From contig NZ_RBKX01000001.1 of the NCBI RefSeq assembly GCF_003634615.1, forward strand, positions 2,170,001 to 2,234,000: a DNA stretch of 64,000 bases, written 5' to 3'. Positions 31,316 to 59,355 of the stretch are shown in pieces. Origin of the DNA: Flavobacterium sp. 102. Its GTDB lineage: Bacteria; Bacteroidota; Bacteroidia; Flavobacteriales; Flavobacteriaceae. The notes under the pieces were generated by a model. It had not been told where the DNA came from. It did no database searches and saw nothing but the letters and a program-made list of their open reading frames with translations. A program made the translations under genes and the position numbers. Numbering within the stretch: position 1 is the stretch's first letter; each line of letters begins with the position of its first letter.

Positions 31316-31343
31316 CCCGAGCCTAAAAGGCGAACTGACGTAG
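31316..31343 (+). repeat. Interspersed mini-hairpin repeat, copy a
   Basis: CCCGAG, stem CCT, AAA loop with an extra A, stem AGG, CGAAC, TGACGTAG. Intergenic, upstream of the lipoprotein ATG. Member of the family also seen at 55448, 56691, 57724, 57808, 57909, 58008 and 59329. Confidence 0.7.
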
Positions 31344-31400
31344 TAATCTTTGATTTCATGGTTGATTATTTTTTTTCGGTAATACAATAACCGTGCAATT

Positions 31401-31892
31401 TTATTTTTTGTTTCGCAAGAGTAATGAAACAAGAGCTCCGGTAATAATTCCCATTGACAATCCACTGAAGACGCCTTGAATCATATAACTTTTTAAGTTA
31501 AAATAACTTTGAGCATCTTTCAAAGTGACGTGACGTGATAATAAAGGACTTTTGGTTTTGTACTCAATGATGGTTTCGAAAAAATGGGGACTGATACTTT
31601 TGTAAATCACAAATTGTGCAATGGGCATCAATAAGGCAATAAAAAATGATAACACAACACCACTTGCAAAACCTTGAGACCAAGTGATATTGTTGTTGTA
31701 AACATATTTTTTCTTTTCTTTTAGGGCTAAATAATAAAACAGCAAAGCAGGAATAGCAAAAAGATTAGTATAAAGCGCATATTGATCGATATGTTGGTCA
31801 TGTAATCCGGTAAATTTTTCTCCAATTGCCCAAGCCAATACCAATAATATAAAGCGAAGTGTCCATTTTATCTCTATGGAATAGTTTTTCAT
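31401..31892 (-). CDS. DUF4199 membrane protein
   Basis: 163 residues with four membrane helices and the family's middle segment ITWSQGFASGVVLSFF. DUF4199 proteins are common in Bacteroidota and of unknown function. Divergent from the YeeE-like genes; has its own -7 element. Confidence 0.85.
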   Translation of the reverse strand: MKNYSIEIKWTLRFILLVLAWAIGEKFTGLHDQHIDQYALYTNLFAIPALLFYYLALKEKKKYVYNNNITWSQGFASGVVLSFFIALLMPIAQFVIYKSISPHFFETIIEYKTKSPLLSRHVTLKDAQSYFNLKSYMIQGVFSGLSMGIITGALVSLLLRNKK

Positions 31893-31912
31893 TGTCTTAT
31901 TTAATTTAAAGT

Positions 31913-31920
31913 CAAAAATA
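31913..31920 (-). promoter_or_regulatory. -7 element TATTTTTG of the DUF4199 gene
   Basis: Perfect TAnnTTTG, 20 bases ahead of ATG 31892; no TTG at the -33 distance. Confidence 0.5.
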
Positions 31921-31964
31921 CTTTATTTCAATAAATTTTATGTCACGAAACACTTTAATATTTC

Positions 31965-31972
31965 TATTTTTG
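31965..31972 (+). promoter_or_regulatory. -7 element TATTTTTG of the YeeE/YedE operon
   Basis: Perfect TAnnTTTG, 15 bases ahead of ATG 31988; no -33 TTG and no Fnr-type box at the activating distance. Confidence 0.5.
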
Positions 31973-31987
31973 TAAAAAAATAGGTGC

Positions 31988-32545
31988 ATGGAATTGATCA
32001 CACATACTTGGCATTGGGCTGTTTCCGGTTTCCTTATCGGAATGATAATGCTGACTCTTAATTATTTTGGAAAAGTATTCGGTATGTCTTCTAATTTACG
32101 TTCGTTATGTTCGATGACCGGAATTGGAAAAAAAGTAGCTTTTTTCGATTGGGACTGGAAATCACAACGCTGGAATTTGGCTGTAGTTGCCGGAGCAATG
32201 CTTGGTGGTTTTGTTGCAGTACATTTTTTGAGTGATGCTTCGAATGTTGATTTGAATCCAAAAACTATTGAACAATTAACAGCAATGGGAATTGAGGCAC
32301 CCAATGGAAAATTGTTACCTGACGCACTTTTCGGAAATGCAATATTCCAATCCCCTAAAATGATAGCGATTTTAATTATCGGTGGGATTTTGATTGGATT
32401 TGGTTCGCGATATGCCGGAGGTTGTACATCGGGTCACGCCATTTCGGGATTGAGTAATCTGCAATTACCATCTTTAAAAGCCGTGATGGGCTTTTTTATT
32501 GGTGGCTTAATTATGGCTCATTTTATTTTACCTCTAATTTTCTAA
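31988..32545 (+). CDS. YeeE/YedE (DUF395) sulfur-compound transporter, first half
   Basis: 185 residues, four or five helices, with the signature SRYAGGCTSGHAISGLS that carries the conserved cysteine of the thiosulfate-uptake YeeE family. Works presumably as a pair with the next gene, 3 bases downstream; together they make up the equivalent of one full-length YeeE. Transported species (thiosulfate or another sulfur compound) is inferred from the family. Confidence 0.88.
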   Translation: MELITHTWHWAVSGFLIGMIMLTLNYFGKVFGMSSNLRSLCSMTGIGKKVAFFDWDWKSQRWNLAVVAGAMLGGFVAVHFLSDASNVDLNPKTIEQLTAMGIEAPNGKLLPDALFGNAIFQSPKMIAILIIGGILIGFGSRYAGGCTSGHAISGLSNLQLPSLKAVMGFFIGGLIMAHFILPLIF

Positions 32546-32548
32546 GAT

Positions 32549-32962
32549 ATGAAATTATTAAAATATATAATCGTTGGTTTTATTTTCGGAATTGTTTTGA
32601 CCAAAGCTGAAGCTGTTTCTTGGTACCGAATTTATGAAATGTTCCATTTCCAATCTTTTCATATGTATGGTATAATTGGAGTGGCTGTGGTAACAGGTTT
32701 GATTGGTATTCAAATTATCAGAAGAAAAAAATTGAAAGACATTGATGGCAACTCAATTTATATTCAGGACAAAGAAAAAGGCAATATCCGTTATTGGATT
32801 GGCGGCACTCTTTTTGGTTTAGGTTGGGCTATGGTTGGTGCTTGTCCCGGACCAATTTTTATCCTTCTTGGTGCCGGATTTATAAGTGTGGGTTTAATTT
32901 TACTAGGGGCAATTTTTGGGACATTTTTATACGGACTTATAAAAGATAAGTTGCCTCATTAA
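32549..32962 (+). CDS. YeeE/YedE family transporter, second half (DUF6691-like)
   Basis: 137 residues, four helices, with GLGWAMVGACPGPIFILLGAG, the second cysteine signature of the family. Starts 3 bases after the first-half gene. Convergent with the Crp/Fnr regulator gene, with 22 bases between the stops. Confidence 0.87.
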   Translation: MKLLKYIIVGFIFGIVLTKAEAVSWYRIYEMFHFQSFHMYGIIGVAVVTGLIGIQIIRRKKLKDIDGNSIYIQDKEKGNIRYWIGGTLFGLGWAMVGACPGPIFILLGAGFISVGLILLGAIFGTFLYGLIKDKLPH

Positions 32963-32984
32963 TAGATTTTGCTAGAAGAGAAAA

Positions 32985-33665
32985 TTAATCGGCTATACGA
33001 CGGAGTTTGTTTTTGTCGACAATTTTGATTTTTTTACCTATCAAATCAATCAAGCCACTTTTCTTAAGTTCAGAAAGTAATCTAATACAACTTTCCGTAG
33101 CTGTACCAATAATTCCGGCCAATTCTTCACGAGATAGTTGAAGCCTAAGCGCACCGTCAGTATCATTACCGAAATTTTCATCTAAATAAATTAATGTTCC
33201 GGCTAAACGCTCTTTTACATTCTTTTGGGCCAAACTAACCATGTGATCATCAGCATCTTTCAAATCACCACAAATGGTTTTCATTAAATTCATTGAAAAC
33301 TGATTGTTTTGATTGAAGAACTGAATAATCTCGTTTTTCGGAATAAAACAAACTTCCATGTCTTCTAAAGCTACAGCACTTAAGTTTGCCGGTTCTTCGC
33401 TAATCATGGAACGTTGTCCTAACAATTCTCCGGGTTTGACCAATTTTACAATTTGATCTTTACCATTGGAACTCAATTTGGACAATTTACAAACACCGTC
33501 TTTTATACAATAAATACCATTAGTCACTTCGCCTTCTTCAAAAATAGGATCTCCTTTCTTAATGGTATAAGAAGTTTTACAGTCGGCCATTTTGAGCAAC
33601 TCATCTTTTGTCAATGCCTTTAGAGAACTAAATTGCCTCACGATACATTGTTCACATTTACTCAT
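32985..33665 (-). CDS. Crp/Fnr-family transcriptional regulator
   Basis: 226 residues from ATG 33665 (the frame opens at 33710 but that lies upstream of the -7 element at 33688-33695). A cyclic-nucleotide-binding-like beta domain (about 20-140) is followed by a winged helix with recognition segment LSREELAGIIGTATESCIRLLSELKKSG. Cysteines Cys4, Cys7 and Cys29 in MSKCEQC and ADCKTSY suggest an Fe-S or redox role like FNR, but a full FNR four-cysteine set is not evident. Its boxes lie at 33703-33718 (beside its own promoter) and 36155-36170 (before the ccoS operon), which makes it the likely oxygen or redox regulator of the cbb3 cluster. Confidence 0.9.
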   Translation of the reverse strand: MSKCEQCIVRQFSSLKALTKDELLKMADCKTSYTIKKGDPIFEEGEVTNGIYCIKDGVCKLSKLSSNGKDQIVKLVKPGELLGQRSMISEEPANLSAVALEDMEVCFIPKNEIIQFFNQNNQFSMNLMKTICGDLKDADDHMVSLAQKNVKERLAGTLIYLDENFGNDTDGALRLQLSREELAGIIGTATESCIRLLSELKKSGLIDLIGKKIKIVDKNKLRRIAD

Positions 33666-33687
33666 ATTGATTTTGGGTTTGTTTTTA

Positions 33688-33695
33688 CAAATATA
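33688..33695 (-). promoter_or_regulatory. -7 element TATATTTG of the Crp/Fnr regulator
   Basis: Perfect TAnnTTTG on the minus strand, 22 bases before ATG 33665. The Fnr-type box 33703-33718 overlaps the region between -7 and -33, a position that would repress rather than activate. Confidence 0.55.
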
Positions 33696-33702
33696 TTGAA
33701 AG

Positions 33703-33718
33703 TATGACAATTATCATA
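33703..33718. promoter_or_regulatory. Fnr-type box between the regulator and the CcoI-type ATPase
   Basis: TATGACAATTATCATA: dyad TATGA-N6-TCATA. On the plus strand its first base lies 37 bases before a GACCTTTG -7-like element (33740-33747) of the ATPase gene. Confidence 0.7.
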
Positions 33719-33739
33719 TTTTAATTTTAGTATTTACTT

Positions 33740-33747
33740 GACCTTTG
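33740..33747 (+). promoter_or_regulatory. -7-like element GACCTTTG of the ATPase gene
   Basis: One mismatch from TAnnTTTG, 22 bases before ATG 33770. No -33 TTG; the Fnr-type box sits at the distance of a class II activator site. Confidence 0.45.
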
Positions 33748-33769
33748 TCCAAGGTAAAATGAGCAAATT

Positions 33770-36145
33770 ATGAATACATCACAGTGTTTCCATTGTGGTA
33801 ATGATGTCATAAAAAAAGACGAGATTCTTTTTGACGACAGAAGTTTTTGTTGTAACGGTTGTAAAACAGTTTACGAAATCTTTAGTCAAAATGACTTGTC
33901 TTGTTATTATGATTTTCAATCGGCGCCGGGCGCTACACCACAAGATATTAAAGGCAAATATGATTTTTTAGCCAATGAAGAAATTGTCAACAAACTTCTC
34001 GAATTCCAAGAAAGTACAACAGCTATTGTTTCACTTTACATTCCTCATATTCACTGTAGTTCGTGTATTTGGATTCTGGAAAATCTACAAAGGCTTCAGC
34101 CGGGAATAGGTGCTTCTCAAGTTAATTTTCCCCATAAGAAAGTAAGAATCACTTACAATCCTGAGCAGACCAATCTCAAACAAATTGTTGAGATACTTTG
34201 TTCTATTGGCTACGAACCCTACATCAGTTTAGAAAATTTTGACGAAGGCAAAAAGAAGATTGACCGTTCCCTAATTTATAGGTTAGGAGTGGCATTCTTT
34301 TGTTTTGGAAACATCATGTTGTTATCGTTTCCCGAGTATTTTGAAGTCAATGAATTTTGGATTGAGCAATACAAGGGATTTTTCCGCTGGCTGACTTTTG
34401 CTTTGTCACTTCCGGCATTTTTGTATTCGGCTTCCATCTATTATGTGGCGGCGTGGAAAAGTATGAAACAAGGCATGTTAAACATCGAAATTCCTATCGC
34501 TTTAGGAATTGTAGTGATGTTTATTCGAAGTACAGTAGACATCGCATTTGGTTATGGTCAAGGCTTTTTTGACAGTATGTGTGGTTTGATTTTCTTTATG
34601 TTGTTGGGAAAATTGTTTCAGAAAAAAACCTATGATTTTCTTTCTTTTGAGCGCGATTATAAATCTTATTTTCCAATCGCAATCACTAAAATTTTACCCG
34701 ATGGAAAAGAAACAGCAGTTCAGGTTTACGATATAAAAAAAGGCGATAGGCTATTAATTCGCAACCAAGAATTAATTCCGGTAGACGGTATTCTGATTTC
34801 TGAAAAAGCTTCCATAGATTACAGTTTTGTAACCGGAGAAGCAGTTGCTATTGATAAAAAATCAGGCGATAAGATTTTTGCCGGCGGAAAACAATTGGGT
34901 AAAGTCATCGAAATGGAAGTCTTGTTTTCGGTGTCCCAAAGTTATTTAACCCAATTGTGGAGCAACGATGTTTTCCAGAAGAAAGTCGACCAAAAACACA
35001 AATCCATTACCGACAAAATCAGTCGTTATTTTACACCGACTTTGTTGCTATTGTCTGTAGTGTCTTTTATTTATTGGATTTTTATTGATGTTTCCACAGC
35101 TTTTAATGTATTCACTGCTATATTGATTGTTGCCTGTCCGTGTGCATTAGCGTTAACTGCTCCATTTACTTTAGGCAATGTATTACGGATTATGGGTAAC
35201 CGAAAATTATACCTTAAAAATGCCATTGTCATAGAGCAATTAGCAAAAGTGGACACCATTGTTTTCGACAAAACCGGAACCATTACCACCAATGAAAAGA
35301 CATCGATAACCTATGAAGGTATCGCTTTAAATGATTTCGAAATGAAATTATTAAAGAATGTACTAAGAGGTTCCAATCATCCGTTGAGCAGAAGATTATA
35401 TGATTTCATTCCACCACAAGATAAAATGGAAACAACTTCTTTTGAAGAGGTCATTGGGAAAGGAATTTTCGCCGAAATCGGACAGGATACGATCAAATTA
35501 GGTTCCTCACAGTTTTTGCAGCACATGAGTGAAAACACCCATAAGAAAACCAAAGTCCATGTTGAAATCAACGGCTTATATAAAGGTAGTTATGTTTTTA
35601 ACAATCAATACAGAAAAGGATTAGAACAATTGTTTGAGAATTTGGACAAAAAGTACAATTTAATTGTATTATCAGGAGACAACGACGGCGAACGCAGCAT
35701 TTTAGAAAAAATGCTTCCCGAAAAAACTACTTTGGCCTTTAACCAAAAACCCGAACAGAAATTAGCTTACATCGATAACCTTCAAAAAGAAGGTAAAAAT
35801 GTATTAATGATAGGCGATGGTCTCAATGACGCCGGTGCCTTGGCACAAAGTAATGTTGGGATTTCTATTTCTGAAAATGTGAATGTGTTTTCACCGGCTT
35901 GTGACGGAATTTTAGATGCAAGTCAGTTTGAAAAGATTGATTTCTTTTTGAAATATTCTAAAAACGCTATGATAACCATTTACTTGAGTTTTGGATTGTC
36001 ATTGCTTTATAATGTAGTCGGCTTAAGCTATGCCGTAACCGGTAATTTATTGCCAATTGTCGCTGCCATCATAATGCCCTTGAGTACGATAACCATAGTA
36101 AGTTTTGTAACCATTATGAGTAATGTTTTTGCCAACAGAAAATAA
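33770..36145 (+). CDS. ccoI: CcoI/FixI-type heavy metal P1B ATPase
   Basis: 791-residue inner-membrane copper ATPase needed for metal insertion into cbb3 oxidase. N-terminal Cys-rich segment (CFHCGNDVIKK and SFCCNGCKTVYEIF, about 5-40) is the metal-binding domain seen in these ATPases, followed by an HMA domain with HIHCSSC (about 95). Core motifs: CPC (ACPCALALTAPF), DKTGTITT with the phosphorylated Asp, and GDGLNDAGALA. The ATP-binding HP motif is present in NHPLSRRLY. Lies immediately upstream of ccoS and the oxidase genes, 73 bases apart, with an Fnr-type box at both its own promoter and the next. Confidence 0.95.
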   Translation: MNTSQCFHCGNDVIKKDEILFDDRSFCCNGCKTVYEIFSQNDLSCYYDFQSAPGATPQDIKGKYDFLANEEIVNKLLEFQESTTAIVSLYIPHIHCSSCIWILENLQRLQPGIGASQVNFPHKKVRITYNPEQTNLKQIVEILCSIGYEPYISLENFDEGKKKIDRSLIYRLGVAFFCFGNIMLLSFPEYFEVNEFWIEQYKGFFRWLTFALSLPAFLYSASIYYVAAWKSMKQGMLNIEIPIALGIVVMFIRSTVDIAFGYGQGFFDSMCGLIFFMLLGKLFQKKTYDFLSFERDYKSYFPIAITKILPDGKETAVQVYDIKKGDRLLIRNQELIPVDGILISEKASIDYSFVTGEAVAIDKKSGDKIFAGGKQLGKVIEMEVLFSVSQSYLTQLWSNDVFQKKVDQKHKSITDKISRYFTPTLLLLSVVSFIYWIFIDVSTAFNVFTAILIVACPCALALTAPFTLGNVLRIMGNRKLYLKNAIVIEQLAKVDTIVFDKTGTITTNEKTSITYEGIALNDFEMKLLKNVLRGSNHPLSRRLYDFIPPQDKMETTSFEEVIGKGIFAEIGQDTIKLGSSQFLQHMSENTHKKTKVHVEINGLYKGSYVFNNQYRKGLEQLFENLDKKYNLIVLSGDNDGERSILEKMLPEKTTLAFNQKPEQKLAYIDNLQKEGKNVLMIGDGLNDAGALAQSNVGISISENVNVFSPACDGILDASQFEKIDFFLKYSKNAMITIYLSFGLSLLYNVVGLSYAVTGNLLPIVAAIIMPLSTITIVSFVTIMSNVFANRK

Positions 36146-36154
36146 AACCCGAAG

Positions 36155-36170
36155 TATGACAAATGTCATA
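36155..36170. promoter_or_regulatory. Fnr-type box ahead of the cbb3 oxidase genes
   Basis: TATGACAAATGTCATA: perfect 7-base arms TATGACA / TGTCATA around AA. First base is 37 bases before the -7 element at 36192-36199, the same spacing as the box at 33703. Both boxes are followed by TTTTAA. Confidence 0.8.
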
Positions 36171-36191
36171 TTTTAAGAATAATCGCAGAAG

Positions 36192-36199
36192 TAATTTTG
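36192..36199 (+). promoter_or_regulatory. -7 element TAATTTTG of the ccoS-ccoNO operon
   Basis: Perfect TAnnTTTG, 19 bases before ATG 36219. No -33 TTG, consistent with dependence on the activator bound at 36155-36170. Confidence 0.65.
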
Positions 36200-36218
36200 T
36201 CTAACACAAATTAGAGGT

Positions 36219-36413
36219 ATGAGTGTCATTTATATGTTAATCTCGATAAGTATTGTAGTCGCTGTATTCTTTCTCTACGCTTTTATCAAAGCAGTAAGAG
36301 GCGGTCAATATGATGACGACTATACACCATCCGTCAGAATGCTTTTTGACGACGAGCTAGTAAAAGAAACTAACAAAAATCAAATTAATATAACCGAAGA
36401 AAAACAATTATAA
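36219..36413 (+). CDS. ccoS: cbb3 oxidase assembly protein CcoS
   Basis: 64 residues, a single membrane helix (about 3-25) followed by a charged tail containing RGGQYDD, the family hallmark (conserved Gly-Gln-Tyr-Asp-Asp). Needed for cofactor insertion into the cbb3 catalytic subunit. First gene after the Fnr-controlled promoter; 2 bases before ccoNO. Confidence 0.88.
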   Translation: MSVIYMLISISIVVAVFFLYAFIKAVRGGQYDDDYTPSVRMLFDDELVKETNKNQINITEEKQL

Positions 36414-36415
36414 TT

Positions 36416-38587
36416 ATGGAAATGCAACAATTTCAGTATGACAACAAAATTGTAAGGAACTTCATTTACGCCAGTATCGTTTTTGGTATTGTAGGTATGC
36501 TAGTTGGGCTATTATTAGCATTTATGTTTTTATTTCCCAACCTAACCAGCGGAGTTTCCTTTTTAAGTTTTGGGCGTCTTAGACCTTTACACACTAATGC
36601 AGTGATTTTCGCATTTGTGGGTAATGCCATGTTTGCCGGAGTGTACTACTCAATGCAACGTTTGTTAAAAGCCAGAATGTTTAGCGACTTGTTAAGCAAA
36701 CTTCACTTTTGGGGGTGGCAATTAATTATAGTAGCCGCGGCGATTACGTTACCGTTGGGCTATACAACTTCAAAAGAATACGCCGAATTAGAATGGCCGA
36801 TTGATATCGCTATTGCTTTGATTTGGGTTGTATTTGGTATCAATATGATTGGTACAATTATCAAAAGAAGAGAACGTCATATTTATGTGGCCATTTGGTT
36901 CTACATTGCGACTTTCGTAACTGTTGCCGTCCTTCACATATTTAACAGTTTTGAATTACCTGTTTCTGCCATGAAATCTTACTCTGTTTATGCCGGAGTG
37001 CAAGATGCCTTGGTACAATGGTGGTACGGACACAACGCTGTTGCCTTTTTCTTAACTACGCCATTCTTGGGAATGATGTACTATTTTGTGCCAAAAGCGG
37101 CTAATAGACCTGTTTATTCATACCGACTTTCTATCATTCACTTTTGGTCACTAATCTTCATCTATATTTGGGCAGGACCACACCATTTATTGTACTCTTC
37201 TTTACCTGATTGGGCACAAAACTTGGGTGTCGTATTCTCAGTAATGTTGATTGCACCGTCTTGGGGTGGTATGATTAATGGATTATTAACCCTTCGTGGG
37301 GTTTGGGATAAAGTAAGAACTGATGCAGTATTGAAATTCTTCGTAGTAGCGATTACCGGTTACGGTATGGCAACTTTTGAAGGCCCAATGCTTTCCTTGA
37401 AAAACGTAAACGCTATTGCCCACTTTACCGATTGGATTATTGCCCACGTACACGTTGGAGCTTTAGCTTGGAACGGATTTTTATCTTTCGGTATGATTTA
37501 TTGGTTGATTCCAAGAATGACTAAATCGAAATTATATTCTGAAAAATTAGCCAACTTCCACTTTTGGATTGGTACTCTAGGGATTATTCTTTATGCATTG
37601 CCAATGTATGTAGCCGGATTTACTCAGGCTTCAATGTGGAAACAATTCAAACCGGACGGCACTTTACAATATGGTAACTTCTTGGAAACGGTGACTCAAA
37701 TTATGCCAATGTACTGGATGCGTGCTATCGGTGGTACTTTGTATTTAATAGGTGTAATTGTTTTGGTTTTCAACATTGTGAAAACAGTAAAACAAGGTTC
37801 AGCAATTCAAGACGAACCAGCAGAAGCTCCGGCACTAGCTGTCATTAGTCCAAACCGTTTGAAAGGTGAAAAATGGCATGCTTGGTTAGAAAGAAAACCG
37901 GTAAGATTTATGATTTACACTACCATAGCTATTTTAATTGGTGGTTTGATTCAAATTCTGCCTACTATTTTAGTAAAATCAAATATTCCAACGATTGCCG
38001 CTGTAAAACCATATACGCCGCTTGAATTACAAGGTAGGGATTTGTATATCAGAGAAGGTTGTGTAAGCTGTCACTCTCAAATGATTCGTCCTTTCCGTTC
38101 AGAAGTTGAACGTTATGGTGAATATTCTAAATCAGGTGAAAATGTTTATGACCATCCATTCCTTTGGGGTTCTAAACGTACCGGTCCGGATTTAGCAAGA
38201 GAAGGTGTTCCAGGAAAACCATTCAATGGAGGTAGAGATGATGTTTGGCATTTCAATCATATGTATGACCCGCAAAGTATTTCTCCGGGATCAATTATGC
38301 CAAGGTACCAATGGTTGATTAAAGACAAATTAGACAATTCAACATTACAAGCTAAATTGGAAGCGATGGTAACTTTAGGAGTTCCTTATTCTGAAGAAGA
38401 AGTGGCAAATGCTCTTAAAATTTCTGATGAACAAGCGTCTAAAATAGAAGCCAAATTATTAGCAAATCCGGATATCAAAAAATCTTTTGGAAATGCAACG
38501 GTTCCGTTGAAAGACAGAGAAATTGTAGCCTTGATTGCTTATCTGCAAAGATTAGGAACAGACACACAAGTAAAATCTAAAAAATAA
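36416..38587 (+). CDS. ccoNO: cbb3-type cytochrome c oxidase subunits I and II fused (CcoN-CcoO)
   Basis: 723 residues. Residues 1-480 are a CcoN-type catalytic subunit of about twelve helices with the expected His-rich metal sites (LHTNAV, WWYGHNAVAFF, WAGPHHLLY, AHVHVGALAW). A short linker leads into CcoO (about 515-723), a membrane-anchored c-type cytochrome with heme motif CVSCH (Cys549) and the QMIRPFRSE segment. In proteobacteria CcoN and CcoO are separate; fusion is usual in Bacteroidota. High-affinity terminal oxidase under low oxygen. Confidence 0.95.
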   Translation: MEMQQFQYDNKIVRNFIYASIVFGIVGMLVGLLLAFMFLFPNLTSGVSFLSFGRLRPLHTNAVIFAFVGNAMFAGVYYSMQRLLKARMFSDLLSKLHFWGWQLIIVAAAITLPLGYTTSKEYAELEWPIDIAIALIWVVFGINMIGTIIKRRERHIYVAIWFYIATFVTVAVLHIFNSFELPVSAMKSYSVYAGVQDALVQWWYGHNAVAFFLTTPFLGMMYYFVPKAANRPVYSYRLSIIHFWSLIFIYIWAGPHHLLYSSLPDWAQNLGVVFSVMLIAPSWGGMINGLLTLRGVWDKVRTDAVLKFFVVAITGYGMATFEGPMLSLKNVNAIAHFTDWIIAHVHVGALAWNGFLSFGMIYWLIPRMTKSKLYSEKLANFHFWIGTLGIILYALPMYVAGFTQASMWKQFKPDGTLQYGNFLETVTQIMPMYWMRAIGGTLYLIGVIVLVFNIVKTVKQGSAIQDEPAEAPALAVISPNRLKGEKWHAWLERKPVRFMIYTTIAILIGGLIQILPTILVKSNIPTIAAVKPYTPLELQGRDLYIREGCVSCHSQMIRPFRSEVERYGEYSKSGENVYDHPFLWGSKRTGPDLAREGVPGKPFNGGRDDVWHFNHMYDPQSISPGSIMPRYQWLIKDKLDNSTLQAKLEAMVTLGVPYSEEEVANALKISDEQASKIEAKLLANPDIKKSFGNATVPLKDREIVALIAYLQRLGTDTQVKSKK

Positions 38588-38592
38588 GCGTC

Positions 38593-38760
38593 ATGTTGAA
38601 ATATGTAAAACACAATTTAGAAACGATTGCGGGTGTAGAAATCTACCCAATTATTTCTCTGACGATTTTCTTTACCGCTTTTGTCTTGTTCACCGTTTGG
38701 GCAATGACCTACAGCAAGGAAACTATCAAAAAAGTAAGTAACCTTCCGTTGGAAGACTAA
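38593..38760 (+). CDS. ccoQ: CcoQ-like small cbb3 oxidase subunit
   Basis: 55 residues (MLKYVKHNLETIAGVEIYPI start, ATG 38593, TAA 38758-38760), too short for simple ORF lists. One helix (about 18-40) ending VWAMTYSKE, then a basic tail, in the ccoN-ccoP interval where ccoQ normally lies. Assigned by size, helix and position. Confidence 0.78.
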   Translation: MLKYVKHNLETIAGVEIYPIISLTIFFTAFVLFTVWAMTYSKETIKKVSNLPLED

Positions 38761-38785
38761 TTATTCCAACTTTAAAAGTATAAAA

Positions 38786-39724: not shown

Positions 39725-39754
39725 TTCGAATTAAATCTTTAATTCAAAAACAAA

Positions 39755-41176: not shown

Positions 41177-41187
41177 AAAATAGAGTC

Positions 41188-41634
41188 ATGAAAATCAATT
41201 GGGGAAAAGGAATTGTCATAGCTATTGCACTATTCATGGGCTTCATTTTATACTTTGTGGTCAAAGTACAATCAGACAGTCAATATGATAACGAAATGGT
41301 TACTGAGCAATATTATAAAAAAGAGAAACTGGTTCAGGGTAATATTGAAAGCATTCAAAATGCCAACAATCTAACAGAGAAAGTAGCTATTGATAAAAAC
41401 GCTGCAGGAGTAACAGTCAATTTCCCCAAGAATTTAGACTATTCAAAAATTAAAGGAAAAGTATCCCTATATAGACCGTCTAACCAAAAACTGGATTTTG
41501 AAATCCCTATTTCTCTGTCCGGTTTTGATTTGCTCATACCTAAAAACAATCTGGTTGACGGTCTTTGGGGTATTACTGTCGCGTGGGAATACGAAGGAAA
41601 AAGTTATTTGAATAAGGAAGAAATCTATTTCTAA
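41188..41634 (+). CDS. ccoH: FixH/CcoH family protein
   Basis: 148 residues, one N-terminal helix (about 7-25) and an extracytoplasmic beta domain. The usual segment DSQYDNEMVTEQYYKKEK follows the helix, which fits FixH. Needed for cbb3 assembly and copper delivery in other bacteria. 11 bases after ccoG. Confidence 0.85.
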   Translation: MKINWGKGIVIAIALFMGFILYFVVKVQSDSQYDNEMVTEQYYKKEKLVQGNIESIQNANNLTEKVAIDKNAAGVTVNFPKNLDYSKIKGKVSLYRPSNQKLDFEIPISLSGFDLLIPKNNLVDGLWGITVAWEYEGKSYLNKEEIYF

Positions 41635-41671
41635 CAGGTCTAACCATCTAAGAAGGCTAATAATCTAAAAA

Positions 41672-42650: not shown

Positions 42651-42674
42651 ATTGATAAGTTAATTGAGTTGTTA

Positions 42675-50568: not shown

Positions 50569-50584
50569 TTTAAAATAATACCAC

Positions 50585-51901: not shown

Positions 51902-51920
51902 TCTTTCAATTTGATTCAAT

Positions 51921-51952
51921 AAAAAAACCATCCAATATCGGATGGTTTTTTT
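51921..51952. terminator. Bidirectional terminator between the TPR gene and lpdA
   Basis: A-tract, ACCATCC / GGATGGT stem with a six-base loop (51928-51946), T-tract. Confidence 0.9.
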
Positions 51953-51972
51953 ATGCTTTATTTTTTCGAATA

Positions 51973-53361: not shown

Positions 53362-53474
53362 TTTTTTTGTAATTATTTATTTAATGTAAAAATGCAGTCG
53401 CTAATGTTCTTGCTATTTTTATAAAATTTATTTGATTATTTGAGATTGCGAATTTACGGAATTATTTTGAAAAT

Positions 53475-55229
53475 TTAGCTTTCTACGGCAAACTGTGAAT
53501 CGTATAAATTTTTGTAATAACCTTGTGCTTTGTTGACCAATTCCTGATGTGTTCCTTCTTCTACAATTTGGCCTTTGTCCATCACAATGATTTTATCTGC
53601 ATTTATAATGGTAGCCAAACGGTGTGCAATGATGATAGAAGTTCTGCCTTGCGTGATTCGCTCAGTCGCTTTTTGGATTAACTCCTCGCTATACGTATCA
53701 ATGGATGAAGTCGCTTCGTCTAAAATCAAAATACTCGGATTACTCACATAAGCCCTAAGAAAAGCAATCAATTGACGTTGGCCGGAAGACAACATCACAC
53801 CTCGCTCTTTAACGTCATAATCATAACCACCGGGCAATGTTTTGATGAATTTATGAACGCCGATTTTTTTTGCTGCTTCAATCACTTCTTCCCGTGAAAT
53901 ATTCGGATTGTTAAGCGTAATGTTGTTGTGAATTGTATCGGCAAAAAGAAAAACATCTTGTAAAACGATGGCAATTTGTTGGCGTAAGCTTTCCAATTGG
54001 AAGTCGTTAATATTTTGGTTATCGACATAAATTGTCCCCGAATTAATTTCATAAAAACGATTCAGCAAATTGATAATGGTAGATTTTCCGGCACCGGTGG
54101 CACCAACGATAGCGATAGTTTCACCTGCTTTAACGTTTAGATTGATACCTTTTAATACTTCTTCTTTATCGTTATAACCAAATCGAACATTCTCAAATCG
54201 GATATTGCCTTTGAAATGGCTGGCCACAACACTTCCGTCTTCCTGAACGTCTTTATCGGTGTCTAAAATGTCAAAAACACGATTGGCGGCTATCATTCCC
54301 ATTTGCATCTCGTTGAATTTATCCGCAATTTGACGCAATGGGTTAAACAACATCCCGATGAACATTGTATAGGAAAACAAATCACCAAAAGTGGTAAACT
54401 TATCACCATCTAAAATATGAAAACCGCCATAAAGTACCACGGCGCCTAACGTTAATGACGAAATGATATCGGCGATAGGGAAGAAGATAGAGTTGTAAAG
54501 AATGGTTTTAATCCAAGCTTTGTTGTGCTTTTGGTTGATTTCCTTAAATTTTTCGTATTCGATTTCTTCGCGGTTGAAAAGCTGAACGATTTTCATTCCG
54601 GTAACGCGCTCTTGTACAAACGTATTCATATTGGCCACCTGATTTCGAACATCTTCAAAAGCCACTTGCATTTTTCGCTGAAAGATTCTAGTGATATAGA
54701 CTAAAACGGGCATCGCCAAAATCACTATCCATGTCAGTCGCCAGTTCATATAAAACATAAAAATCAGTATCACAATCATTTTCAACATATCACTGATGAT
54801 CATGAATAAACCTTGGCTAAAAATACGAGCAATTTGTTCAATGTCAGATACAGAACGAGTTACCAATTGTCCGACAGGTGCATGGTCAAAATATTTCATT
54901 CTGAAACTGAGCATATGCTTGAATAACTTGGTTCGAATGTCTTTAATAATATCTTGTCCTAACCAATTCGCCCAATACACAAAATAGAATTGGGATAGGG
55001 TTTCTAAAATCAACACAACGCCCATAATGGTTACATAAAACAATAAACCATGTTCGTCCTTCGGTGCTATATATTCATCAACGGTTTGTTTTAACAAATA
55101 AGGACGAAGTGCTGCAAAAACGGAAAGCAATACGGCAAACAAAATCACACCGTAATACCTTTTTTTATAAGGCTTGGTGTATTTTAAAATGCGTTTGAAT
55201 AAATTAGTATCGAATGCTTTTGCTTGCAT
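53475..55229 (-). CDS. MsbA-like ABC exporter, fused permease and ATPase
   Basis: 584 residues: six-helix membrane domain (about 15-320) with coupling-helix segments, then an ABC domain with Walker A VGATGAGKSTI, Q-loop, signature LSSGQRQLI, Walker B LILDEATSSID and H-loop. Half-transporter that acts as a homodimer, exporting a hydrophobic or lipidic substrate; lipid A transport is possible but not shown. Starts 1 base after the truA stop, so the two are co-transcribed. Confidence 0.93.
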   Translation of the reverse strand: MQAKAFDTNLFKRILKYTKPYKKRYYGVILFAVLLSVFAALRPYLLKQTVDEYIAPKDEHGLLFYVTIMGVVLILETLSQFYFVYWANWLGQDIIKDIRTKLFKHMLSFRMKYFDHAPVGQLVTRSVSDIEQIARIFSQGLFMIISDMLKMIVILIFMFYMNWRLTWIVILAMPVLVYITRIFQRKMQVAFEDVRNQVANMNTFVQERVTGMKIVQLFNREEIEYEKFKEINQKHNKAWIKTILYNSIFFPIADIISSLTLGAVVLYGGFHILDGDKFTTFGDLFSYTMFIGMLFNPLRQIADKFNEMQMGMIAANRVFDILDTDKDVQEDGSVVASHFKGNIRFENVRFGYNDKEEVLKGINLNVKAGETIAIVGATGAGKSTIINLLNRFYEINSGTIYVDNQNINDFQLESLRQQIAIVLQDVFLFADTIHNNITLNNPNISREEVIEAAKKIGVHKFIKTLPGGYDYDVKERGVMLSSGQRQLIAFLRAYVSNPSILILDEATSSIDTYSEELIQKATERITQGRTSIIIAHRLATIINADKIIVMDKGQIVEEGTHQELVNKAQGYYKNLYDSQFAVES

Positions 55230-55230
55230 A

Positions 55231-55998
55231 TTATTTTATATAGTCGTAATCAATTTGGGTTAGGTACAAACCGTGCGCAGGCACAGAAAATCCCGCTTGA
55301 CCTCGGTCTTTACTTTCAATTATTTTTTCAAAATCTTCTAAGTTTATTTTGCCTAAACCGATATTAATCATGGTTCCGACAATGGCACGAACCATATTAC
55401 GTAAAAAGCGATCAGCGGCTATGGTGAACACTAATTTGTTGCCGTTTGACTCCGTCCTGTTCGCCTTTGGCTCGAGTTGTTGCCAGTGTGCTTCAAAAAT
55501 AACACAATTAAACGTTCTGACGTCTGTATTGGTTTTAGAAAAACATTCAAAGTCAGTATACTTGAAAAGGATTTGGCACGCTCTGTTCATTTTGTCTACA
55601 TCCAAAGGCAATTGGTGCAACCAACTCCCGTCGTTTTCAAAAGCATCTTTGAAAGTGTGAATGTGGTATTCATAAGTTCGTTTCGTAGCATCGAAACGGG
55701 CATGAGCATCATCGTGTACTTTTCGGATATCAAAAATGACAATGTCTTTGGGTAAAAAAGAATTGAGTTTGTGAACTATGAGTTTACTGTCGATATCGGT
55801 TTCATAATCAAAATGCGCATACATTTTTTTGGCATGAACGCCGGTATCGGTTCGGCCTGCACCAACAATATCAATCTCTTTTTTTAGAATGATGGATAAA
55901 GCCTTATTGAGTGTTTCTTGTACGGAACTTGCATCGGGTTGGTACTGCCAACCGTGGTAATTTGTTCCTTTATAAGCTAATTCAATAAAATATCTCAA
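55231..55998 (-). CDS. truA: tRNA pseudouridine(38-40) synthase, TTG start
   Basis: 255 residues; makes pseudouridine at 38-40 of tRNA. Catalytic Asp in GAGRTDTGVHA and FFDIRKVHDDAHARFDA are visible. Start is TTG 55998 (MRYFIELAYKGTNYHGW): the earlier in-frame TTG at 56028 overlaps the -7 element. Between the usual EAHW and KLVFTIAADRFLRNM segments it carries an extra QQLEPKANRTESNGN, encoded by an interspersed mini-hairpin repeat (55448-55476); the family has a loop there. Confidence 0.93.
   Translation of the reverse strand: MRYFIELAYKGTNYHGWQYQPDASSVQETLNKALSIILKKEIDIVGAGRTDTGVHAKKMYAHFDYETDIDSKLIVHKLNSFLPKDIVIFDIRKVHDDAHARFDATKRTYEYHIHTFKDAFENDGSWLHQLPLDVDKMNRACQILFKYTDFECFSKTNTDVRTFNCVIFEAHWQQLEPKANRTESNGNKLVFTIAADRFLRNMVRAIVGTMINIGLGKINLEDFEKIIESKDRGQAGFSVPAHGLYLTQIDYDYIK
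55448..55476 (-). repeat. Interspersed mini-hairpin repeat, copy b, inside truA
   Basis: Minus strand CTCGAG, stem CC, AAA, stem GG, CGAAC, AGGACGGAG. Encodes LEPKANRTES in frame in a loop of TruA. Confidence 0.7.
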
Positions 55999-56025
55999 TG
56001 TGGATGTTCCTAGTTTTATGAGGTG

Positions 56026-56033
56026 CAAAGGTA
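56026..56033 (-). promoter_or_regulatory. -7 element TACCTTTG of truA
   Basis: Perfect TAnnTTTG on the minus strand, 27 bases before TTG 55998; it covers the alternative TTG at 56028. Confidence 0.6.
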
Positions 56034-56080
56034 CAAAGGATTTTAAATTGGATGTTTAAAGTTTTCATAATTTCATTGAT

Positions 56081-56088
56081 TATATTTG
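56081..56088 (+). promoter_or_regulatory. -7 element TATATTTG of the phosphoesterase gene
   Basis: Perfect TAnnTTTG, 43 bases before the TTG start at 56132. Divergent to the truA promoter, 48 bases away. Confidence 0.55.
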
Positions 56089-56131
56089 TAACCTCAAAAC
56101 CTAGTGCCTCAGCACCTCAGTACCTTTTACC

Positions 56132-56626
56132 TTGAAAAAAATCTTATTACTTTCCGATACCCATAGTCATATTGATGATACTATTTTGAAATATGTTCAC
56201 CAAGCTGATGAAGTCTGGCATGCCGGAGATATTGGAGATTTAAATGTGACTGATACGATTAAAGCAATCAAACCTTTGCTAGCGGTTTACGGCAACATAG
56301 ACGATGACAAAGCCCGAATGGAATTTCCGTTGAACAATAGGTTTTTCTGTGAAGGTGTTGACGTTTGGATAACTCATATTGGCGGTTATCCCGGAAAGTA
56401 CAATCAGGCCATTCGAACTGAAATTCAAACCAGTCCACCGAAGCTTTTCATTTGTGGGCATTCGCACATACTGAAAGTACAATTTGATAAAAAACTCAAT
56501 TTATTGCATATGAATCCGGGAGCTTGTGGGATTTACGGATTTCATCAGGTGCGAACGATGTTGCGTTTCGAAATTGATGGCGATAAAATTCAGAATTTGG
56601 AGATTATTGAAATAGGGAAGAAGTAG
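56132..56626 (+). CDS. YfcE-type metallophosphoesterase, TTG start
   Basis: 164 residues, single calcineurin-like domain: LLSDTHSHID, AGDIGDL, VYGNIDD, GHSHILKVQ and MNPGACG, all metal-binding positions of the YfcE/MJ0936 group (phosphodiesterase activity on small substrates). TTG 56132 is the only start codon after the predicted transcription start and before the DTH motif; the in-frame stop upstream is TAG 56102-56104. Divergent from truA. Confidence 0.9.
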   Translation: MKKILLLSDTHSHIDDTILKYVHQADEVWHAGDIGDLNVTDTIKAIKPLLAVYGNIDDDKARMEFPLNNRFFCEGVDVWITHIGGYPGKYNQAIRTEIQTSPPKLFICGHSHILKVQFDKKLNLLHMNPGACGIYGFHQVRTMLRFEIDGDKIQNLEIIEIGKK

Positions 56627-56630
56627 TTTT

Positions 56631-56730
56631 AAACACAGATTTCACAGATTATCACAGATTTGTGTTTAATTATTAATTTGTAAAAATTTACTTCGTCAGT
56701 TCGCTTCGCTCGGGTGTGTAATCTGTGTTT
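56631..56730. repeat. Inverted-repeat element with embedded mini-hairpin (copy c)
   Basis: AAACACAGATT (56631-56641) and its reverse complement AATCTGTGTTT (56720-56730) bound a segment containing CACAGATT repeats and, at 56691-56715, mini-hairpin copy c (minus strand ACCCGAGCGAAGCGAAC, then TGACGAAG). The whole block fits the gap between the phosphoesterase gene and its terminator and may be a small dispersed element. Confidence 0.55.
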
Positions 56731-56746
56731 AATATAAATGATTCAA

Positions 56747-56781
56747 TAAAAAACCCGTCTGTTTAAAAAGACGGGTTTTTC
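56747..56781. terminator. Terminator between the phosphoesterase and DUF4293 genes
   Basis: A-tract, ACCCGTCT / AGACGGGT stem with an eight-base loop (56753-56776), T-tract. Serves both convergent genes. Confidence 0.9.
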
Positions 56782-56809
56782 GCAGCACTAAAAAACTAAG
56801 TTTATAGGT

Positions 56810-57217
56810 TTATCGCAATCGATCCACAGATTTTACGAGATCTTCATCCTTTTTAATGGCTTTGTTGGCCAAAACCAAAAGTACGATAGAAAGAATAGGT
56901 AAGAACATCCCAACACCTTTCTCAGAAACAATAGCTTCTCCAGATGCAGTTAGTGTTCGGTACACAAATAATCCTAATAAAATTAAATTCAATATGATAT
57001 TCAATCTGCCCATGACAAATTGTTGTTGTCTTTTTGCGTGTGATAAAATGCTCAATAATGACAGCGTGCTGCTCAATCCGAATAGCGCGGTGTAAGCAAT
57101 ATCCATCATAAAATAGATTGATTTACCCGATGCGTCATTCCACAAAGGAAACACAAATGGTAAAACACCAGTTACGATTAGGCAAGCTATCAAATAATAA
57201 GTCTGTATTCTAAACAT
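56810..57217 (-). CDS. DUF4293 membrane protein
   Basis: 135 residues, four helices, with the family start MFRIQTYYLI and an acidic-basic tail. Function unknown; it lies beside rho in flavobacteria. Own -7 element at 57238-57245. Confidence 0.83.
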   Translation of the reverse strand: MFRIQTYYLIACLIVTGVLPFVFPLWNDASGKSIYFMMDIAYTALFGLSSTLSLLSILSHAKRQQQFVMGRLNIILNLILLGLFVYRTLTASGEAIVSEKGVGMFLPILSIVLLVLANKAIKKDEDLVKSVDRLR

Positions 57218-57237
57218 AGTTCTTGAAAAATGTTGTA

Positions 57238-57245
57238 CAAAAATA
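57238..57245 (-). promoter_or_regulatory. -7 element TATTTTTG of the DUF4293 gene
   Basis: Perfect TAnnTTTG, 20 bases before ATG 57217. Confidence 0.5.
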
Positions 57246-57404
57246 TAGTTTCTTTTTAAAAAATACTATTGCATGGTAAAAATTTATTTGTATTATTGCA
57301 TAACAAATCCGCAAGTACTTCATCTTCGGACTTTTCTATACCAATATTTTCTACCCACATTTGTAGTATTTTCCAAAGAACAAATTTAAATCAAAACAAT
57401 ATTG

Positions 57405-59243
57405 ATGTTTGATATTTCCGCCTTAAAAGAAATGAAGCTTTCTGAGCTTCAAGACATTGCCAAGTTGGCAAAAACTATTAAAGTCACCGGTGCCAAAAAA
57501 GATACGCTAATTGCAAAAATTTTGGAACACCAAAACAATACTGTAACCGAAGAGAAACCCAAAGTTACTTCAGACCAGAATGATAGCGAATTGGCTAAGC
57601 AAAAAGCAGCAGTTGATAATAAAAGTAAACGCGCCCGAATTACGCCTGAAACCAAAAAAGCACCTGAAACCAATCAAAATGATTTGTTTGCCAATGAGGA
57701 ACCGATAGCGGTCGTAGCCGAAGCCCCGAGCGATAGCCAACGGGCGGAGCAAAAGCCGGCTTTTGAAAGCAAAAACCCTAAGTTTAAAAAACCTTTCGAT
57801 AAAAAAACTCGAGGCGGAGCCGAACAGAACGAAGCTAAACCCGGCAATACACCTTCACAGCAATCAAGCGATAGCGAAGTTGAAGAAAAGCAACGGGCTG
57901 TTGAAGTTCCAAGCGATAGCGAACAGACGCAACAAACTGAAGCCAATCCAAACCAAAATAAGGATGGTAACCGTCTGCAAAAGCCTAAAAATCCGAACCA
58001 AAATCAACACGAGCGTAAGCGAACTGACGAAGTAAACCAAAATGGCAATGGTAACGGTAATGCAAACAATAACAACCCTAATTTTAAAGGAAAGAAACAT
58101 AGTAATTTCCGCGATTCCGATTATGAATTTGACGGAATTATTGAAAGCGAAGGTGTTTTAGAAATGATGCCTGATGGCTACGGTTTCTTGCGCTCTTCTG
58201 ATTATAACTACTTAGCGTCTCCCGATGATATTTATTTATCGACTTCTCAAATCAGATTATTCGGTTTGAAAACCGGTGATACCGTAAAAGGAGTAGTACG
58301 TCCGCCTAAAGAAGGTGAAAAATTCTTCCCATTGGTTCGCGTTTTAAAAATCAATGGACATGATCCGCAAGTCGTTAGAGATAGAGTTTCCTTCGAACAC
58401 TTAACGCCAATTTTTCCAAAAGAAAAATTCAATATAGCCGATAAACAAGCCAGCGTTTCCACCAGAGTAATCGATTTGTTTTCGCCAATCGGTAAAGGAC
58501 AACGCGGTATGATTGTGGCCCAACCCAAAACAGGTAAAACAATGTTGTTAAAAGACATTGCCAATGCCATTGCGGCCAATCATCCTGAAGTTTATTTGAT
58601 AGTGTTACTAATTGACGAACGTCCGGAAGAAGTTACCGATATGCAACGTAGTGTTCGTGGTGAAGTAATTGCTTCTACTTTCGACAGAGAACCAATGGAA
58701 CACGTAAAAATTGCCAATATTGTTTTAGAGAAATCAAAACGTTTGGTAGAATGTGGTCATGATGTAGTGATTTTGTTGGATTCGATTACGCGTTTGGCCA
58801 GAGCTTATAATACGGTGCAACCGGCATCCGGTAAAGTACTTTCGGGTGGAGTTGATGCGAATGCGTTACAAAAACCAAAACGTTTCTTCGGTGCGGCTCG
58901 TAACGTAGAAAACGGTGGTTCACTCAGTATCATCGCAACAGCTTTAACGGAAACCGGTTCTAAAATGGACGAAGTAATCTTCGAAGAATTTAAAGGAACA
59001 GGTAATATGGAGTTGCAATTGGACAGAAAAATTGCCAACCGAAGAATTTTCCCGGCTATCGATTTGACTTCATCCAGTACGCGTCGTGATGATTTATTGT
59101 TAGACGAAAAAACACTACAAAGAATGTGGATTTTGCGCAAGTTCTTAGCTGATATGAATCCGGTAGAAGCGATGGATACCATTAATGATAAGATTAAGAA
59201 GACCCGAAATAACGATGAGTTCCTCATTTCGATGAACGATTAA
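57405..59243 (+). CDS. rho: Transcription termination factor Rho with long disordered insert
   Basis: 612 residues from ATG 57405 (an overlapping TTG three bases earlier is less likely). Rho-N-like segment at 1-45, then a disordered, Asn/Gln/Lys/Glu-rich insert (about 50-240), then the OB-fold RNA-binding domain and the RecA-like motor with P-loop [11 protein letters not shown] and the secondary site. Insert-bearing Rho is typical of Bacteroidota, and in Bacteroides such an insert drives Rho condensates. Here the insert carries at least four copies of the interspersed mini-hairpin repeat, giving peptides such as [19 protein letters not shown] and PSDSEQTQQ, and HERKRTDE. Confidence 0.96.
57724..57749 (+). 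repeat. Interspersed mini-hairpin repeat, copy d, inside rho
   Basis: CCCCGAG, C, GATA, G, then CCAAC, GGGCGGAG. One arm of the closing pair differs from the consensus. Read in frame as APSDSQRAE. Confidence 0.6.
57808..57834 (+). repeat. Interspersed mini-hairpin repeat, copy e, inside rho
   Basis: ACTCGAG, stem GC, GGA, stem GC, CGAAC, AGAACGAAG. Read in a different frame from copy d, as [10 protein letters not shown]. Confidence 0.55.
57863..57932 (+). repeat. Interspersed mini-hairpin repeats, copies f and g, inside rho
   Basis: Two copies: 57863-57887 (diverged, CAAGCGATAGCGAAG) and 57909-57932 (CCAAGCGATAGCGAAC, then AGACGCAA). Both read in the same frame as copy d ([13 protein letters not shown]). 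Confidence 0.55.
58008..58032 (+). repeat. Interspersed mini-hairpin repeat, copy h, inside rho
   Basis: CACGAG, C, GTAA, G, CGAAC, TGACGAAG: almost identical in its 3' half to intergenic copy c. Read in a third frame, HERKRTDE. Confidence 0.6.
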
Positions 59244-59247
59244 ATAT

Positions 59248-59280
59248 TGAATCCCAACTTAACGGTTGGGATTTTTTTTA
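59248..59280 (+). terminator. Intrinsic terminator after rho
   Basis: AATCCCAAC / GTTGGGATT stem with a six-base loop (59250-59273), followed by a run of T. Confidence 0.9.
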
Positions 59281-59315
59281 GCAAATATTTATCATAATGC
59301 AACATTTTCATTCTT

Positions 59316-59323
59316 TACTTTTG
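59316..59323 (+). promoter_or_regulatory. -7 element TACTTTTG of the EamA transporter gene
   Basis: Perfect TAnnTTTG. The ATG at 59297 lies upstream of it, so it cannot be translated from this promoter; the next in-frame start is GTG 59372. Confidence 0.55.
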
Positions 59324-59328
59324 CAGCA

Positions 59329-59355
59329 CCCGAGACCGAAGGTCGAACGGAATGA
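59329..59355 (+). repeat. Interspersed mini-hairpin repeat, copy i, in the EamA leader
   Basis: CCCGAG, stem ACC, GAA, stem GGT, CGAAC, GGAATGAA. It starts about where transcription should begin, so it would form the 5' leader of the mRNA. Confidence 0.65.

What the first reader, a model, noticed from the sequence alone, without database searches (positions are those of the whole stretch)
31316..59355. A family of interspersed mini-hairpins with covarying stems
About nine copies share CCCGAG, a 1-3 base stem, a 3-4 base A-rich or GAA loop, the matching stem, CGAAC and about eight more bases (nGAnnGAAG). The stem changes between copies (CCT/AGG, CC/GG, GC/GC, ACC/GGT, C/G) while pairing is kept: covariation that points to selection on a folded nucleic acid rather than a protein. 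Copies lie between genes (31316, 56691), in the leader of the EamA gene (59329), and inside truA and rho coding sequence.
Basis: seen in the sequence. Interest (0 to 1): 0.78.

Follow-up and report, generated by a model that had tools for sequence, protein, structure and literature searches.

The report
Thirty-base mobile double-hairpin DNA element
This Flavobacterium genome carries dozens of copies of a piece of DNA only about 26 to 43 letters long that folds into two tiny hairpins and seems to have jumped into gene starts and even into essential genes without breaking them, which would make it one of the smallest mobile elements known.

Summary
The copies and their covariation are real, but the unit is larger than described and appears to be mobile. 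It reads A-CNCGA-[hairpin 1]-GAACNG-[hairpin 2]-A, 26-43 nt; the supposed fixed tail is a second covarying mini-hairpin. A covariance model finds 73 copies in the 3.8-Mb genome. 91 of 150 congeneric genomes have exact matches (406 in all; 1 for the backwards control pattern). Close relatives usually lack it at the same site: at truA all 7 relatives that aligned (of 9 given) have an exact 30-bp-shorter empty site; of 16 further copies, 14 have an empty site in at least one relative, 11 with tidy borders. No target duplication beyond one ambiguous A; insertion is usually just 5' of an A-run. 22 of 24 in-ORF copies are sense; 11 of 49 noncoding copies start 0-6 nt after a TAnnTTTG promoter box, but 0 of 63 noncoding copies from other genomes do. 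Best reading: a folded single-strand micro-element moved in trans, closest in behaviour to cyanobacterial small dispersed repeats. The enzyme is unidentified; the RAYT genes inspected have other palindromes.

The parts
31315..31344 (+). element copy, ACCCGA[GCCT AAA AGGC]GAACTG[AC GTA GT]; lies inside a longer inserted repeat of about 77 nt (about 31291-31367, ends blurred by T-runs) upstream of a minus-strand gene
   Evidence: gap in relatives; longer repeat aligned
56690..56715 (-). intergenic element copy, ACCCGA[GC GAA GC]GAACTG[AC GAA GT], between the metallophosphoesterase and DUF4293 genes
   Evidence: the relatives' intergenic region did not align cleanly
59328..59359 (+). element copy in the leader or N-terminus of the EamA gene, ACCCGA[GACC GAA GGTC]GAACGG[AAT GAA ATT]; TACTTTTG just upstream
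   Evidence: no orthologous site recovered
55447..55476 (-). element copy inside truA: 30-bp in-frame insertion, CTCGA[GCC AAA GGC]GAACAG[GAC GGA GTC]A
   Evidence: empty site in all 7 relatives that aligned of 9 given (G119, G148, G133, G040, G141, G013, G048); domain; coordinates
57724..57750 (+). rho copy 1, degenerate
   Evidence: not seen in the 5 relatives (alignment loose here)
57807..57836 (+). rho copy 2, ACTCGA[GGC GGA GCC]GAACAG[AACGAAGCT]
   Evidence: not seen in 5 relatives
57907..57933 (+). rho copy 3, decayed; shared with G119; borders approximate
   Evidence: (E 0.24)
58007..58033 (+). rho copy 4, ACACGA[GC GTAA GC]GAACTG[AC GAA GT]
   Evidence: not seen in 5 relatives

Best explanation
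It is a very small non-autonomous mobile element of 26-43 nt. SHOWN by comparison: it is present or absent as a unit at orthologous sites, with sharp ends and no target duplication beyond one ambiguous A, and its two hairpins are kept while their letters change. INFERRED: the moving form is a single strand (more likely DNA than RNA) folded into two adjacent mini-hairpins that an enzyme acting in trans recognises by shape plus a few fixed bases (CnCGA, GAACnG). It is joined into another exposed single strand just 5' of an A-run, often the non-template strand of transcribed DNA; in this genome the transcription start region is a favoured spot. The enzyme is not identified. A HUH/Y1 single-strand transposase acting on a non-cognate hairpin is the kind I think most likely (my estimate 0.35 for that step alone).
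For: Empty sites: truA; 14 of 16 further copies, 11 tidy, e.g. TTATCTTTGTT^AAAATTT and GAGAATG^AAAAATTCG in G119. Copies inside REP palindromes beside two RAYT genes have the same ends, by eye (L213, L218). Two-hairpin finder: 44 hits in own loci (43 convincing by eye) against 1 in reversed sequence; named Bacteroidota loci 90 against 8; other loci of unnamed relatives 23 against 3; other phyla 5 against 3. Covariation with tested columns free. Bursts with one stem: G121, 15 of 17 copies CGATAG; G013, 5 of 8 GCTTTTGC. In-ORF lengths are multiples of three in 18 of 19, noncoding in 17 of 35. Sense bias 22 of 24 here and 13 of 15 elsewhere, although antisense has more stop-free frames (mean 2.16 against 1.31 of 3). 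TAnnTTTG just upstream in 11 of 49 noncoding copies, 0-1 in each control window; the box is mostly present in relatives without the element. Loop 2 is GNA in 46 of the 54 own copies whose hairpin 2 resolves; GNA loops are reported as extraordinarily stable in DNA mini-hairpins (title seen only as a cited reference; content recalled).
Against: No enzyme is tied to it. Energy models give no special stability: z 0.50, 0.27, -1.11, 1.20 as DNA and -0.42, 0.28, -2.00, -0.58 as RNA for four copies. Promoter placement: 0 of 63 noncoding copies from other genomes. Hairpin loops as target: not supported. Replication-strand bias depends on where the origin is put (p 0.035 with dnaA as origin; sampled GC skew turns elsewhere). 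The sense bias inside genes could be selection on the encoded peptide. In three of the 14 empty sites the borders are untidy (285173, 175913, 3422778).
Confidence: 0.7

Rival explanations
1. It is an ordinary REP, mobilised by a RAYT (REP-associated tyrosine transposase) of the genome.
For: Size and hairpins fit. The RAYT model NF047646 hits 14 of 16 chosen genomes (own and 15 others, most with many copies) at E up to 10, 7 of 16 over its cut-off. Genomes with Y1_Tnp have more copies by rank (p 0.034) though not by mean (2.61 against 2.95). Some Y1/RAYT loci do hold a copy: L201, L213, L214, L218.
Against: Of 11 RAYT loci printed, 10 show by eye a different palindrome around the gene (L224 unclear), and in two of them the element is inserted inside that palindrome. 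A first scan of 30 RAYT-hit loci (some overlapping) found one convincing copy, about 860 bp from the gene, and two weak ones. The two highest-copy genomes, G016 (40) and G145 (28), have no PF01797 match, only sub-cut-off NF047646 hits; G100 (12) and G148 (10) have neither (for G100, G145 and G148 the PF01797 absence is read from their not being among the 108 matches). No GTAG in the consensus.
Confidence: 0.15
2. It spreads through an RNA copy that is inserted or joined at RNA level and reverse transcribed, as proposed (recalled) for cyanobacterial SDRs.
For: Sense orientation and placement near 5' ends of transcripts; A-run on the 3' side of the target, which would suit priming from a T-run.
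Against: The complete own genome has no RVT_1 match, and copy number does not go with RVT_1 over 150 genomes (p 0.32). Loop 2 is GNA with any middle base in most own copies rather than GNRA.
Confidence: 0.1
3. It is a cis-acting 5'-leader hairpin kept because it tunes mRNA stability or translation.
For: 11 of 49 noncoding copies begin 0-6 nt after the -7 box; two copies shared with G119 keep paired stems after change, one by a G-C to A-T double change.
Against: Relatives run the same promoters without it; 24 of 73 own copies lie in ORFs; no promoter link in 63 copies elsewhere; no Rfam match in the window at gathering scores.
Confidence: 0.1
4. The sense bias and in-frame lengths are only survivorship: insertion is random in strand and place and harmful copies are lost. 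(This concerns placement and can hold together with the best explanation's mobility.)
For: In-ORF copies are 27 or 30 nt in 18 of 19; sense peptides such as PSDSEQTQQ or HERKRTDEV are polar and sit in the variable rho linker.
Against: Stop codons alone would favour antisense (35 of 39 pooled sense, p 2e-11 against the stop-free expectation). It does not explain the tight TAnnTTTG spacing.
Confidence: 0.35

Closest known systems
Small dispersed repeats (SDRs) of Nostoc, Elhai et al. 2008, Genome Res 18:1484 (recalled; the paper is not held; cited in PMC3116915 and PMC2884548, passages seen)
   Same: Recalled: 21-27 nt, mobile, predicted fold supported by compensatory changes, often inside heptameric tandem repeats. 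Here too, in other genomes, 18 of 77 copies sit in a tandem repeat with a run of 10 or more against 3.3% of control sites, period 7 or 14 in 14 of the 18 (several of these from one genome); in the own genome 0 of 54.
   Different: Other phylum; two adjacent hairpins; A-run target; sense-strand and, in this genome, promoter placement; in-frame copies in truA and rho; orthologous empty sites shown here.
REP / REPIN with RAYT (PMC3116915 and PMC6006769: passages, and section 25 of the latter)
   Same: Tens of nt, hairpins, spread within a genome; PMC6006769 gives Bacteroidetes a RAYT subclass of their own with atypical flanking structures.
   Different: No GTAG, not the palindrome around the RAYT genes inspected, mini-stems of about 2-7 bp instead of one long imperfect palindrome.
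CGTC REPs and Rickettsia RPE-4/RPE-6 (PMC3733652: abstract, section 6 and passages seen)
   Same: No transposase known; intragenic copies occur; reported from Bacteroidetes among five phyla.
   Different: The CGTC head, 8-9 bp stem and CCA tail are absent here. The CGTC core as I recall it also contains GCGAG...GCGACGAAG, so a distant link is a lead only.
IS200/IS605 ends (recalled)
   Same: Strand-specific hairpins at both ends, no target duplication.
   Different: No coding region between the hairpins in any copy seen; no conserved tetranucleotide on the 5' side of the site.
REP-like sequences counted by RepRanger in two Flavobacterium genomes (PMC12306157, one passage seen)
   Same: Same genus; thousands of automatically called REP-like sequences.
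   Different: Whether that list includes this element could not be seen.

Membership tests
Small dispersed repeats (very small mobile repeats) | Tens of nt, dispersed, many copies | tested here: met
   73 model matches; 26-43 nt in the 54 of 73 whose second hairpin resolves
Small dispersed repeats (very small mobile repeats) | Fold kept by compensatory change | tested here: met
Small dispersed repeats (very small mobile repeats) | Evidence of mobility | tested here: met
   empty sites
Small dispersed repeats (very small mobile repeats) | Sequence kinship with the Nostoc SDR families | not tested
   SDR sequences not held
RAYT-associated REP | Copies bracket a RAYT gene | tested here: not met
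   11 loci printed, 30 scanned
RAYT-associated REP | GTAG-like tetranucleotide at the foot of a palindrome | tested here: not met
   consensus has none
RAYT-associated REP | RAYT present where copies are many | tested here: inconclusive
   G100 (12 copies) and G148 (10) have no PF01797 (E 0.001) or NF047646 (E 10) match, but most high-copy genomes have one; a lost gene cannot be excluded
CGTC REP | CGTC head, 8-9 bp stem, CCA tail | tested here: not met
   consensus against the description in PMC3733652 section 6
MITE | Terminal inverted repeats and target-site duplication | tested here: not met
   insert ends, at most 1-nt ambiguity
IS200/IS605-derived element | Recognised by a Y1 transposase in trans | not testable with these tools
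   needs binding or cleavage assay
Known structured RNA | Match to an Rfam family | tested here: not met
   0 matches in the window at gathering scores

The most novel reading that the evidence does not exclude
A 26-43-nt folded single-stranded DNA element is inserted into the non-template strand of transcription bubbles, above all at open promoters, so that new transcripts begin at or near the element; an as yet unknown enzyme reads two mini-hairpins and joins them 5' of A-runs. This would be a mobile element that uses transcription, not replication, as its source of single-stranded target.
Probability: 0.2. Interest if true: 0.92.

Novelty: new variant of a known kind. Interest (0 to 1): 0.72.

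Why it matters
If right, a unit of about 30 nt is enough to be mobile, and it can be dropped into conserved genes (truA, rho) in frame and into transcription start regions. That makes the lower size limit of mobile DNA, and how such an element finds its enzyme and its target, directly testable in a cultivable genus. It also offers a simple source of new 5' leaders and of insertions in variable protein linkers.

Tried and rejected
RAYT as the obvious partner: searched by PF01797 and NF047646; the RAYTs inspected have other palindromes. Reverse transcriptase: no RVT_1 in the own genome and no link to copy number. Hairpin loops as preferred target: looked striking by eye, but stems of 6 or more around the site in 4 of 77 against 3.3% of controls, own 1 of 54 against 2.7%. 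Replication-strand bias: p 0.035 for 73 copies (0.007 for the 54 best, 0.23 for the 26 best) only if dnaA at 72 kb marks the origin; sampled GC skew turns near 0.75 and 3.0 Mb, so dropped. Kink-turn: considered from the G.A step, no suitable second helix by reading; not tested. Promoter rule as general: not seen in other genomes. Rfam: none in the window. The loop-2 tally (GNA in 105 of 113) is not used as evidence, because the pattern that fetched most of those loci itself asks for GAAG; the own-genome tally replaces it. Literature: eight listings showed no description of this element in their titles and abstract starts; they cover open-licence full texts only, and one search showed 15 of 201. 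PMC12306157 counts REP-like sequences in two Flavobacterium genomes (one passage); its list was not seen.

Rows dropped before counts: L010, L012, L013 (unpaired) and L021 (near-duplicate) of the 30 exact matches before building A1; the L153 array reduced to one copy; one more copy whose end did not fit; 19 of 73 own copies without a resolvable second hairpin left out and of the own set; 2 of 73. Two MAG loci labelled Bifidobacterium breve (L094, L181) were kept in the 'Bacteroidota' set (73 of 119 loci). The coding class goes by ORF length of 150 aa or more, not annotation; the EamA copy (sense) and the 31316 copy (antisense) in that class are probably leader copies. Of 24 sites prepared, 16 were sent.
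Full report
WHAT WAS CLAIMED AND WHAT IS THERE. The exact motif occurs three times in the window against 0.11 expected, and a covariance model built from 26 genome-wide copies finds eight credible window copies: 31310+, 56686-, 59323+, truA 55445-, and four in rho (57719, 57802, 57912, 58002; the third weak, E 0.24). Genome-wide there are 30 exact matches against 4 for the backwards pattern and 73 model matches at E up to 1, with 150 of 660 first-look candidates scored. Printed with their flanks, nearly all look like one family.

ANATOMY. Reading the copies together shows a second hairpin where the finding saw a fixed tail. The unit is A C N C G A [stem 1, loop, stem 1'] G A A C N G [stem 2, three-base loop, stem 2'] A. 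A finder that demands both hairpins gets 44 hits in 211 kb of own loci and 1 in the same sequence reversed; one of the 44 looks like chance. In 73 named Bacteroidota loci it gets 90 against 8, in 46 loci of other phyla 5 against 3, in 149 loci of unnamed relatives 23 against 3. Because such a finder selects for pairing, covariation was tested on copies found by a pattern that leaves the tested columns free: 74 of 78 paired in hairpin 1 and 77 of 78 in hairpin 2, against shuffle maxima of 53 and 58; 45 matches from other phyla show nothing. In the first alignment the covariation score also beat all shuffles, while two coarser measures did not. The shuffles ignore relatedness. The second base of CNCGA covaries with the base after GAAC (35 of 71, shuffle mean 20.9). 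Stem 1 runs from 2 to about 7 pairs. The G.A/A.G step that flanks stem 1 is read from the sequence, not computed.

MOBILITY. At truA the own genome has exactly 30 bp more than seven relatives (G119, G148, G133, G040, G141, G013, G048), which share the empty site; two further relatives given (G065, G071) did not align on both sides. For 16 other copies whose flanks were sent to G119 and G133, 14 are empty in at least one of them, 11 with tidy borders; 285173, 175913 and 3422778 are untidy; 962637 and 1239208 are filled in G119. Nothing is duplicated beyond a single A that cannot be assigned. The target is typically N^A, mostly an A-run. In rho, copies 1, 2 and 4 are not seen in five relatives and copy 3 is shared with G119, but the linker aligns loosely. 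Copies also interrupt palindromes beside RAYT genes in two other genomes with the same ends, by eye.

WHERE IT LANDS. Of 24 own copies inside an ORF of 150 aa or more, 22 are in the sense direction; in other genomes 13 of 15. Stop codons cannot explain it, since antisense has more open frames, but peptide quality might. In-ORF lengths are multiples of three in 18 of 19, noncoding in 17 of 35. Of 49 noncoding own copies, 11 start 0 to 6 nt downstream of an exact TAnnTTTG box and none shows it in antisense there, with 0 or 1 in each control window. The box is mostly kept in relatives that lack the element (an exception is 175913 in G119), so it predates the insertion. TAnnTTTG as the Bacteroidetes -7 box is recalled. 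This promoter habit was not found in 63 noncoding copies from other genomes; those are instead often inside short tandem repeats, 18 of 77 with a run of 10 or more against 3.3% of control sites, some of them from one genome; in the own genome 0 of 54.

WHO MOVES IT. Unknown. The own genome has one Y1_Tnp gene, embedded in a different repeat, and a longer RAYT-like frame beside yet another repeat. Across 150 congeneric genomes, copies are commoner by rank where Y1_Tnp is present (p 0.034) though not by mean, and the two highest-copy genomes lack it; RVT_1 shows no link and is absent from the own genome. In 395 genomes of the order the strict pattern occurs in 5, own included, in 3 of 108 genera, so the burst is mostly a feature of this genus. 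The genus is taken as Flavobacterium because G016, in the same genus, has a contig of the same length and element positions as NKJD01000008.1, Flavobacterium sp. BFFFF2.

DNA OR RNA. Loop 2 is GNA in 46 of 54 own copies, with any base in the middle; GNA loops are the ones reported (title seen in reference lists; content recalled) to make extraordinarily stable DNA mini-hairpins. Standard energy models do not reproduce special stability in either chemistry. I lean to DNA, without proof.

COMPARISON. In behaviour the closest thing is the small dispersed repeats of Nostoc (recalled; the paper is not held; two papers that cite it were seen in passages). It fails tested defining features of RAYT-linked REPs, CGTC REPs and MITEs. 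I therefore file it as a new variant of the very-small-mobile-repeat kind.

VERDICT. The strongest open questions are the enzyme and whether transcription supplies the target.

Noticed in passing
window about 31291-31367; L296-L300, L024: The 31316 copy is part of a longer repeat (TTTTTTTGGTATTCGTGA-element-TGnAATAATCTTnGATTTCATGA) found in several places of own, G119, G148 and G065; the own copy is a gap of about 77 nt in five relatives and lies antisense before a start that reads ATGAGTAAA.
   Followed up: partly
G000:C1:1044472-1047816 (L031): A 153-aa Y1_Tnp gene sits in a long array of CCCTGACGGGATTTTGTTGTTG repeats, a separate REP-like family.
   Followed up: partly
G000:C1:2635443-2638598 (L230): By eye, a 268-aa RAYT-like frame carries internal repeats (VETRLI) that resemble the GAGACGCGAT...ATCGCGTCTC palindromes beside it, as if that repeat also inserts in frame.
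   Followed up: no
L153 (Paenimyroides tangerinum contig NZ_RQVQ01000081.1): Thirteen near-identical copies of the element on one strand of a 4.7-kb contig.
   Followed up: no
L083 (contig labelled Candidatus Nitrotoga MAG): One perfect two-hairpin copy under a non-Bacteroidota label, perhaps a mis-binned contig.
   Followed up: no
loci L212-L218: The Flavobacterium RAYT genes printed there each have their own palindrome on both sides, a tidy set of REP/RAYT pairs.
   Followed up: partly
window 21062-29071: A 2669-aa minus-strand open frame, not examined.
   Followed up: no
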